DNA of 64,000 nt from Sphingomonas hankookensis (lineage in GTDB: Bacteria > Pseudomonadota > Alphaproteobacteria > Sphingomonadales > Sphingomonadaceae): the NCBI RefSeq assembly GCF_028551275.1, contig NZ_CP117025.1, positions 801,501 through 865,500 on the forward strand, in the 5' to 3' direction. Below, one piece after another: positions 17,990 through 25,494 of this stretch (position 1 is the first letter of the stretch; every line of letters begins with the position of its first letter). The notes beneath the pieces are model-generated. The model worked only from the letters and a program-made list of their open reading frames with translations. It was not told the DNA's origin and searched no databases. A program made the translations under genes and the position numbers.

Positions 17990-18265
17990 TCAGGCTGATT
18001 TTGAGCGTTCCGCCGATCGCCGGCCGATCGCGTCCCAGAAGGAGCTATTCATGACATTGGAATAATCGATCGGCAGCAGCTCCATCCAGCCGATGACCTG
18101 GAGGAGGGTAAGGAGGCCGAGCCCGATCGCGGAGCCGGCGAGTTGCTCGCCGAGCAGGTTCGTCTCGAACGCCGAGCTAAAGTAAAGCGCGGACTTGATG
18201 CCGTCGGCGCCCAGAACGGCGCTGGGCGTGAACAGGAGGTCGGGGCCAAGGATTAGCAGGTCGGG
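17990..18265 (-). pseudogene. 3' part of IS-split nuclease-like gene (DUF6602-like)
   Basis: The C-terminal ~90 codons of a gene whose 5' part lies at 21200-21815. Reading leftward from the IS3 edge gives PDLLILGPDLLFTPSAVLG ... WMELLPIDYS and a stop at 17990. Deleting the IS3 element and one copy of its 4-bp target duplication (CGGG, 18262-18265 and 21200-21203) joins the parts in frame as GGDHAPDLLILG, giving a 295-residue protein. The fragment has no start or ribosome binding site of its own, so it is not expected to be translated. Confidence 0.8.
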
Positions 18266-18299
18266 TGAGCAGCCCCCATCGGGTGGTCCGGGTTATTAG

Positions 18300-18640
18300 T
18301 TAGTGCATTGTCGTCTCCGCCGCCATTGCCGGTCGTAGGTGGAGCGAAGCGGAACCGGAGGCCGGCAATGGCGGTGTCGCCGCTTGTGGTGCGGGCGGCC
18401 GATAGCCCAGGCTGCTGTGCGGCCGGACGGTGTTGTAGTGACGGCGCCACGCCTCGATCAGTACCCTTGCTTCAGCGAGGCTGTAGAAGATCTCGCCGTT
18501 GAGCAGCTCATCGCGCAGCGAGCCGTTGAAGCTCTCGTTGTAGCCATTCTCCCACGGCGAACCCGGCACGATGTACAGCGTCTTCACGCCAACCTGCCCG
18601 AGCCATTTCTGAACCGCGGTAGCGATGAACTCGCTGCCGT
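18300..18640 (-). pseudogene. IS3 transposase orfB, C-terminal part
   Basis: C-terminal part of the DDE integrase-type transposase: GSEFIATAVQKWLGQVG, the catalytic-Glu region SPWENGYNESFNGSLRDEL and the family end HYNTVRPHSSLGYRPPAP. It is cut from its N-terminal half by the IS110-family element after the codon for Asn of the catalytic RSDNG motif. The open frame running from the IS110 edge begins at an accidental ATG, so this is a fragment rather than a working gene. Confidence 0.88.
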
Positions 18641-24339: not shown

Positions 24340-24342
24340 GGC

Positions 24343-25494
24343 TTAGCTCTCTTCCTCGGCCTTGACCGCCTTGCCGAGCTGGCGGCTGACGGTCGATTTA
24401 TCCTTGCCGGTAATCTCGGCGATGTCGGTCATCGAGAAGCCAAGCTCGGCATCGTCGCGCATCGCGCGGAACAGCCGGCTAGGCTCGGAGAAGAGCAATG
24501 CGCGCCGCTCGCTTTGCACGCGCGCGGCATTGAGCGTGGCGAACTGGCGCAGGGTGTTCAGCAGGTCGAGCCGCTCGGTCGTGCGCACCGCCATCGCCTT
24601 CTTGTATGTGCGCACCAATGATTCAATTTCGGCGCCGGTCGCGCCCTCGGTAAACCAGGCGATCAGCTGGAGATGGCTGTCGGGAGCCTCAATTGGCGGC
24701 ATGAACTGCGTCGCGATCGCCTTGCGCATCGCAAAGTCAGGGCGCGGGATCTCGAGCTGCACCTCAAAGCGCCGCCAGACGGCGGGGTCGAGCAACTTGG
24801 GATGATTTGTGATCCCAATGGTGAAACCGACATCTCGGCGCGAGTCGAGGTTTTGAAGGAGGGCGTTCACCACCCTCTTAATCTCACCAACCTCCTGCGG
24901 GTCGTCGCGCACCTTGGCGATCGCATCGAACTCGTCGAGCAGCAGCACGCAGCGGTAGCGATTAGCGAAGGTAAACAGGTTGCCAATGTTGCGCGCTGTG
25001 GTGCCGAGGAACGAGGAGACGAGGCCGTCAAGGCGGACGAGCACCACCGGCAGGTCGAGCTTGTGCGCCATCCACTGGGCGAGGCGGGTCTTGCCGGTCC
25101 CTGGCGCGCCATAGATCAGGCAGGTCTTCGCCGGCGCGATCTCCAGTTCGCTTAAGGCCTCGAAATGCGCCCATTCGTCGACGATCGTGGCCACGGCTTG
25201 AGTGACGATCGGGTTGAACAGGGGCGGACGCCCCTGGATTTGCGCCGGAAAGATGATCTCGGCAAGCGCGGCTGCGGTCTCGCGATCGACCGGGACTGGC
25301 GTATTCGGCCCAAGCGTCTCTCCGGCGAACTGCGCCTTCGATCGCTCGATCCGGCTCGGCGCAACCTCGGTCGCGCGCTGTGAGGTCGCGAGGATGCCAG
25401 CAAGGGACGACGCCTGCTTGTCTTCACCTCCCTTCGCAAGCGCATCTCGCAGGCGCTCGACCTGCTTGCGCACGGCGGGTGATGGGTCCGCCAT
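24343..25494 (-). CDS. ietA: AAA ATPase of an ietAS-like system
   Basis: A 383-residue AAA+ ATPase. Walker A is YGAPGTGKTRLAQ (about residue 130), Walker B is RCVLLLDEFDAIAK (about 185), a sensor Asn follows in IGITNHPKLLD, and an arginine-rich RRFEVQLEIPRPD completes the core. The C-terminus (SMTDIAEITGKDKSTVSRQLGKAV) reads as a helix-turn-helix. I chose ATG 25494 (MADPSPAVRKQ); ATG 25566 in frame is possible. It lies directly ahead of the subtilase gene in one operon. In ietAS the ATPase is thought to control the protease; no substrate is known from this sequence. Confidence 0.82.
   Translation of the reverse strand: MADPSPAVRKQVERLRDALAKGGEDKQASSLAGILATSQRATEVAPSRIERSKAQFAGETLGPNTPVPVDRETAAALAEIIFPAQIQGRPPLFNPIVTQAVATIVDEWAHFEALSELEIAPAKTCLIYGAPGTGKTRLAQWMAHKLDLPVVLVRLDGLVSSFLGTTARNIGNLFTFANRYRCVLLLDEFDAIAKVRDDPQEVGEIKRVVNALLQNLDSRRDVGFTIGITNHPKLLDPAVWRRFEVQLEIPRPDFAMRKAIATQFMPPIEAPDSHLQLIAWFTEGATGAEIESLVRTYKKAMAVRTTERLDLLNTLRQFATLNAARVQSERRALLFSEPSRLFRAMRDDAELGFSMTDIAEITGKDKSTVSRQLGKAVKAEEES

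What the first reader, a model, noticed from the sequence alone, without database searches (positions are those of the whole stretch)
17990..25494. Three-gene operon: AAA ATPase, subtilase and a nuclease-like third gene
The AAA ATPase and cytoplasmic subtilase match the known ietAS pair. A third gene begins 25 bases after the subtilase and, when rebuilt, encodes a 295-residue protein with E...D...ExK spacing (Asp72/73 or 78, Glu109, Lys111) like a PD-(D/E)XK nuclease. I know of no description of ietAS with such a nuclease-like partner, so this could be an extended variant in which the protease or ATPase controls a nuclease.
Basis: partly seen in the sequence, partly recalled or inferred. Interest (0 to 1): 0.72.

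Follow-up and report, generated by a model that had tools for sequence, protein, structure and literature searches.

The report
ietAS pair plus broken NucC-like nuclease
A known two-gene phage-defence pair (an ATPase and a protein-cutting enzyme) sits next to a third gene that looks like a DNA-cutting enzyme of the NucC type, but that gene is broken here by a mobile element and was not found beside the pair in the other genomes examined, so it looks like a separate defence gene stacked in the same island rather than a new part of the system.

Summary
In detail: on the minus strand lie ietA (24343-25494), ietS (21841-24339) and, 25 bases on, a DUF6602 gene. That gene is split by a 2.9-kb IS3-type element carrying an IS110-type insert (N-part 21201-21815, C-part about 17990-18280).

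The extended-ietAS reading fails its own test. The DUF6602 profile hits none of 55 other IetS-bearing loci (48 with 1 kb or more downstream), and no IetAS lies beside any of 36 other DUF6602 loci (24 with 4 kb or more upstream). The only other case is 100% identical DNA. No SMODS cyclase or Csm1-type Cas10 was found in the genome.

Best reading: ordinary ietAS with a stand-alone NucC-like gene stacked downstream and since broken. Side leads: other defence genes follow ietS elsewhere, and three loci hold ietAS inside a type I restriction operon.

The parts
24343..25494 (-). ietA: AAA ATPase, 383 aa (an in-frame GTG at 25566 would give 407 aa)
   Evidence: PADLOC IetA PDLC02195 7e-150; Pfam AAA 4.7e-27; Walker A/B-type motifs
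21841..24339 (-). ietS: S8 subtilase, 832 aa (signal peptide not examined)
   Evidence: PADLOC IetS PDLC02199 1e-293; Pfam Peptidase_S8 1.5e-20; D, H, S motifs
21201..21815 (-). third gene, N-terminal part: DUF6602, NucC-like nuclease core with D73, D78, E109, K111; the frame runs on to a stop at 21111 inside the IS
   Evidence: Pfam PF20247 8.9e-18; A1 profile 1.3e-84, positions 2-198; PADLOC NucC 1.3e-9 and NucC-type Effector 1e-11
17990..18280 (-). third gene, C-terminal part, cut off by the IS; frame ends at 17993, stop at 17990-17992
   Evidence: A1 profile 5.0e-22, positions 193-281, at 18014-18280; positions 196-281
18264..21203 (.). IS3-type element that interrupts the third gene (ends approximate), with an insert at about 18641-20302 that holds an IS110/IS116-type transposase (18730-20064, +)
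   Evidence: three bare copies elsewhere in the genome (L005-L007) match about 18266-18640 and 20303-21201 at 99.5-100%; HTH_Tnp_1, HTH_21, rve and rve_3 in its frames (that this is the IS3 layout is recalled); Transposase_20 and DEDD_Tnp_IS110 in the insert

Best explanation
A complete two-gene ietAS system, with a separate stand-alone nuclease gene of the DUF6602/NucC-like kind stacked directly downstream in a defence island, later broken by an IS. ietAS: the AAA protein restrains or aims the subtilase, which is the toxic effector (inferred from a published related pair). The third protein is a NucC-fold, metal-dependent DNA cutter with its own, unknown trigger (fold and active-site residues shown on intact relatives; activity, metal and trigger inferred). 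Its place after ietS gives it shared transcription (inferred from the 25-base gap), not a shared mechanism. In this genome the gene is split (shown), so the locus now works, if at all, as plain ietAS (inferred).
For: IetA/IetS models. The DUF6602 profile hits 0 of 55 other IetS-bearing loci, 48 with 1 kb or more downstream. IetA and IetS searches find no pair in the 36 other DUF6602 genome loci. Contig-length check: the top-120 IetS and top-120 IetA lists share 21 lengths with each other and 0 with the 66 DUF6602 lengths. No plasmid or phage record matches the DUF6602 protein P0002 at 1e-5, although 54 plasmid records match IetS at that level, 14 of them over at least 80% of its length. In 397 genomes of the window's family, 2 hold the DUF6602 profile at 1e-10, one being this genome. 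NucC fold. IS interruption. Toxin and antitoxin roles in a related pair: PMC5006074 (passages).
Against: Same strand and a 25-base gap are what a co-functional gene would show. The nearest intact DUF6602 relatives (P0002-P0010, 67-77% identity) are known only as proteins; their neighbours could not be read, and the contig-length check sees only 120 of 664 IetS and 120 of 2738 IetA hits. At least 10 of the 48 other loci have some other defence-type gene after ietS on the same strand, which could hint at exchangeable partners.
Confidence: 0.78

Rival explanations
1. Extended ietAS: the protease or the ATPase releases or activates the nuclease, which is the real effector.
For: 25-base gap, same strand; NucC-like fold; Shedu, DUF3223 with HEPN_Swt1, AbiJ or GajA lie in the same slot in some relatives.
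Against: Not conserved in either direction. On plasmids the slot genes lie mostly in records without IetS: HEPN_Swt1 with IetS in 1 of 20 records, DUF3223 in 2 of 7, Shedu in 2 of the 40 listed of 58.
Confidence: 0.1
2. A CBASS- or CRISPR-type NucC: the nuclease answers a cyclic tri-adenylate made elsewhere in the cell.
For: All 14 chains with Foldseek E up to 0.001 are NucC; a CapP-like M78 peptidase lies beside it on the other strand (17134-17874, 2.5e-46).
Against: No SMODS cyclase and no Csm1-type Cas10 in this genome at E 0.01; the frame before the CapP-like gene has no PADLOC match. Other cyclase families were not searched.
Confidence: 0.08
3. The truncated 234-residue product is still made and active, since all four catalytic residues lie in the N-part.
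For: Frame open to 21111; residues present.
Against: It lacks the part that follows profile position 198 of 284, which in the model holds several strands and the last two helices, and ends in IS-coded residues.
Confidence: 0.04

Closest known systems
ietAS / IteAS (AAA ATPase IetA + subtilase IetS; pTi pair, SGI1 S026-S025, anti-phage system)
   Same: Gene order, both protein families, motifs, genes abutting
   Different: A branch best matched by PADLOC PDLC02195/PDLC02199 and well under the NCBIfam IteA/IteS cut-offs (272.5 of 510 and 308.6 of 900 bits); here followed by a DUF6602 gene
NucC (effector nuclease of CBASS and type III CRISPR)
   Different: 16-20% identity in the structural alignments; the intact relative is 291 residues against about 240; no SMODS or Csm1-type cyclase found in the genome
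DUF6602 (Pfam PF20247)
   Same: The third gene is a member above cut-off
   Different: No paper under that name in the open library (0 papers); here beside ietAS and broken
Shedu (SduA)
   Same: Also a PD-(D/E)XK-type defence nuclease (recalled), and found after ietS in two related plasmids

Membership tests
ietAS | IetA-type AAA ATPase with Walker A and B | tested here: met
   PADLOC 7e-150; motifs
ietAS | IetS-type S8 peptidase with Asp, His, Ser motifs directly downstream | tested here: met
   PADLOC 1e-293; motifs
IteA/IteS as curated by NCBIfam (equivalog) | Score above the curated cut-off | tested here: not met
   272.5 of 510 and 308.6 of 900 bits: a divergent branch, outside the curated core
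ietAS | Toxin/antitoxin or anti-phage activity | not testable with these tools
   needs experiment
ietAS extended by DUF6602 | Third gene conserved beside ietAS | tested here: not met
   0 of 55 other IetS-bearing loci, 48 with at least 1 kb downstream; 0 of 36 other DUF6602 loci, 24 with at least 4 kb upstream
DUF6602 (PF20247) | Score above the Pfam cut-off | tested here: met
   64.6 against 27 bits
NucC | NucC fold over the whole chain | tested here: met
NucC | D...ExK active site at aligned positions | tested here: met
   alignments; invariant in 26 of 26 rows; that these are NucC's catalytic residues is recalled
NucC | Trimer activated by cA3 | not testable with these tools
   single-chain model; pocket residues not compared
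NucC in CBASS or type III CRISPR | Cyclase partner | tested here: inconclusive
   no SMODS and no Csm1-type Cas10 in the genome at E 0.01; other cyclase families not searched

The most novel reading that the evidence does not exclude
ietAS is a trigger module whose output can be one of several exchangeable nuclease-type partners placed directly after ietS (NucC-like DUF6602 here; Shedu, DUF3223 with HEPN_Swt1, AbiJ, GajA, or a type I restriction operon elsewhere), so that DUF6602 is a NucC switched on by a protease/ATPase instead of a cyclic nucleotide.
Probability: 0.08. Interest if true: 0.75.

Novelty: new member of a known kind. Interest (0 to 1): 0.33.

Why it matters
It argues that this is not an extended ietAS, and it gives a family of unknown function (DUF6602) a fold and a likely activity: NucC-like nucleases found in this survey mostly as lone genes. 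What triggers them is a clear bench question. The type I restriction operons with ietAS between hsdM and hsdS are a separate lead.

Tried and rejected
Rejected: that DUF6602 is an ietAS subunit (no conservation in either direction). Not accepted for lack of support: that the place after ietS is a conserved nuclease slot. The genes there are unrelated to each other, lie mostly without IetS on plasmids, and two pairs of cases are related DNA (L076/L080 85.6% identical over 5.2 kb, L077/L082 93-94%). Considered and not followed: a working truncated product; the CapP-like neighbour as a regulator.

Rows dropped before counts: of 46 family genomes with an IetS-model match I read on in this genome and 11 others (E up to 3.5e-24) and left the other 34, weaker matches, aside; of 54 plasmid records I read 12, though the DUF6602 search covers all plasmids; all 7 further class genomes, 16 of 17 further phylum genomes (the 17th, G280, was already in) and the viral contigs were read. 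A1 holds 26 of the 67 DUF6602 hits, picked by hand for spread. Genes after ietS were family-scanned for 11 chosen loci only; those chosen genes were then sought in all 57 entries, so the count of 10 is a minimum.

Led nowhere: paper searches for ietAS with a nuclease or a third gene, for DUF6602 and for orphan NucC: nothing on the point in the listings. Promoter and terminator scan near chance. IetS in phage records: 4 distant hits. Searches centred on G428 and G630 reached only 3 and 4 genomes. PADLOC scan of 95 neighbours of DUF6602 from 27 of the 36 loci (9 loci lacked the motif that my script used to find the gene and were dropped): no family in more than 2 members among the 25 shown of 284.

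Full report
Check of the observation. IetA (24343-25494) and IetS (21841-24339) match the PADLOC IetA and IetS models at 7e-150 and 1e-293, carry Walker-type and subtilase motifs, and lie 3 bases apart. The third gene starts 25 bases after the ietS stop. The window lies in a genome of 3.95 Mb in 4 contigs; window 21149-29803 is 100% identical to Sphingomonas hankookensis CN3 (L039), whose contig ends inside the same broken gene. That the 'family' of the genome searches is Sphingomonadaceae is inferred from this.

State of the third gene. A DUF6602 profile (A1, 26 intact or nearly intact relatives) finds the gene in two pieces, window 21201-21797 and 18014-18280, which together span profile positions 2-281 of 284; at E 0.001 the genome holds no other match. 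Between them lies an element at about 18264-21203 whose frames match HTH_Tnp_1, HTH_21 and rve-type integrase models, an IS3-type layout (recalled). Three other copies in the genome (L005-L007) lack about 18641-20302; that stretch holds an IS110-type transposase. The halves were not joined.

Is it part of ietAS? I collected IetS-bearing loci from plasmids (12 of 54 records), from 397 genomes of the family, 385 of the class and 398 of the phylum (overlapping sets) and from viral contigs. The DUF6602 profile was run over all six frames of the window region plus 56 loci: it hits the window and L039 and none of the other 55. Of the 55, seven have under 1 kb after ietS (L092, L099, L145, L149, L151, L155, L161), leaving 48; some of these have a broken or partial ietS (L077, L084, L098, L106, L162). 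From the other side, a scan of one genome for each of 84,980 species, by two peptide patterns, gave 37 DUF6602 loci. IetA and IetS searches hit L039; elsewhere there is only one weak AAA match (L042, 54.6 bits, other strand, no subtilase). Of the 36 other loci, 24 hold at least 4 kb upstream of the match; the rest are short contigs. Most neighbours are not shared between loci in the part that was shown; the pairs L043/L048 (93% identical DNA) and L041/L050 do share some. In 397 family genomes only this genome and one weak match (G257, 1.9e-11) carry the profile at 1e-10.

What else lies after ietS. Same-strand defence-type genes follow in at least 10 of the 48 loci: Shedu after a 78-residue frame (L076, L080), DUF3223 (L079), DUF3223 plus HEPN_Swt1 (L082, and L077 beyond an IS21 insertion), AbiJ (L103), GajA (L100) and HsdS (L143, L147, L148); L108 has a Shedu facing ietS. 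L076/L080 and L077/L082 are related DNA, so there are fewer independent events. On plasmids these genes lie mostly in records without IetS: HEPN_Swt1 with IetS in 1 of 20, DUF3223 in 2 of 7, Shedu in 2 of the 40 listed of 58. I read this as stacking in defence islands; exchangeable effectors remain possible.

How it works. ietAS is shown here only as sequence; a related pair on SGI1 is described as a subtilisin-like toxin and an AAA antitoxin (PMC5006074, passages); its anti-phage role is recalled and stands in the NCBIfam names. Third protein: most likely a metal-dependent DNA cutter with its own trigger (inferred). The usual NucC trigger looks absent: no SMODS cyclase and no Csm1-type Cas10 in the genome at E 0.01; other cyclases were not searched. 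In this genome the gene is broken. The surroundings fit a defence island: a UG5-nitrilase reverse transcriptase (26338-29514, PADLOC 5.2e-275) and a CapP-like peptidase (17134-17874, 2.5e-46).

Novelty. ietAS is known; this is a member of a divergent branch. I found no paper under DUF6602 in the open library and none on ietAS with a nuclease partner (listings, plus passages of one paper). Subscription papers are mostly not in that library. The NucC-like and mostly lone nature of DUF6602 is the most useful point.

Wording of the absence counts was mended, the cyclase row was moved to inconclusive, the selection of loci was spelled out, and the IS and type I operon calls were tested.

Noticed in passing
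Seen in 3 of 57 IetS-bearing entries.
   Followed up: partly
window 18264-21203; L002, L003, L004: The IS3-type element with the IS110-type insert matches three other places of the genome, one on another contig (C2), at 97, 92 and 87% identity, beside three bare copies (L005-L007): the nested unit may move as one element.
   Followed up: partly
window 26338-29514: UG5-nitrilase reverse transcriptase (DRT type), 1058 aa, PADLOC 5.2e-275.
   Followed up: no
window 16161-17874: A sigma-70 region-2-like protein (weak, 18 bits, below cut-off), a 116-aa frame and a CapP-like M78 peptidase in a row on the plus strand; no PADLOC match for the first two.
   Followed up: no
L082:9546-11120, L077:11593-13498, L079:8521-8835: A DUF3223 (HamC-like) frame, with a HEPN_Swt1 protein after it in L082 and L077, follows ietS in three alphaproteobacterial loci.
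   Followed up: partly
L040-L075: DUF6602 genes of this branch stand mostly alone; among 95 scanned neighbours a few match defence families (HamA, AbiLi, LmuB, GajB; at most 2 members each).
   Followed up: partly
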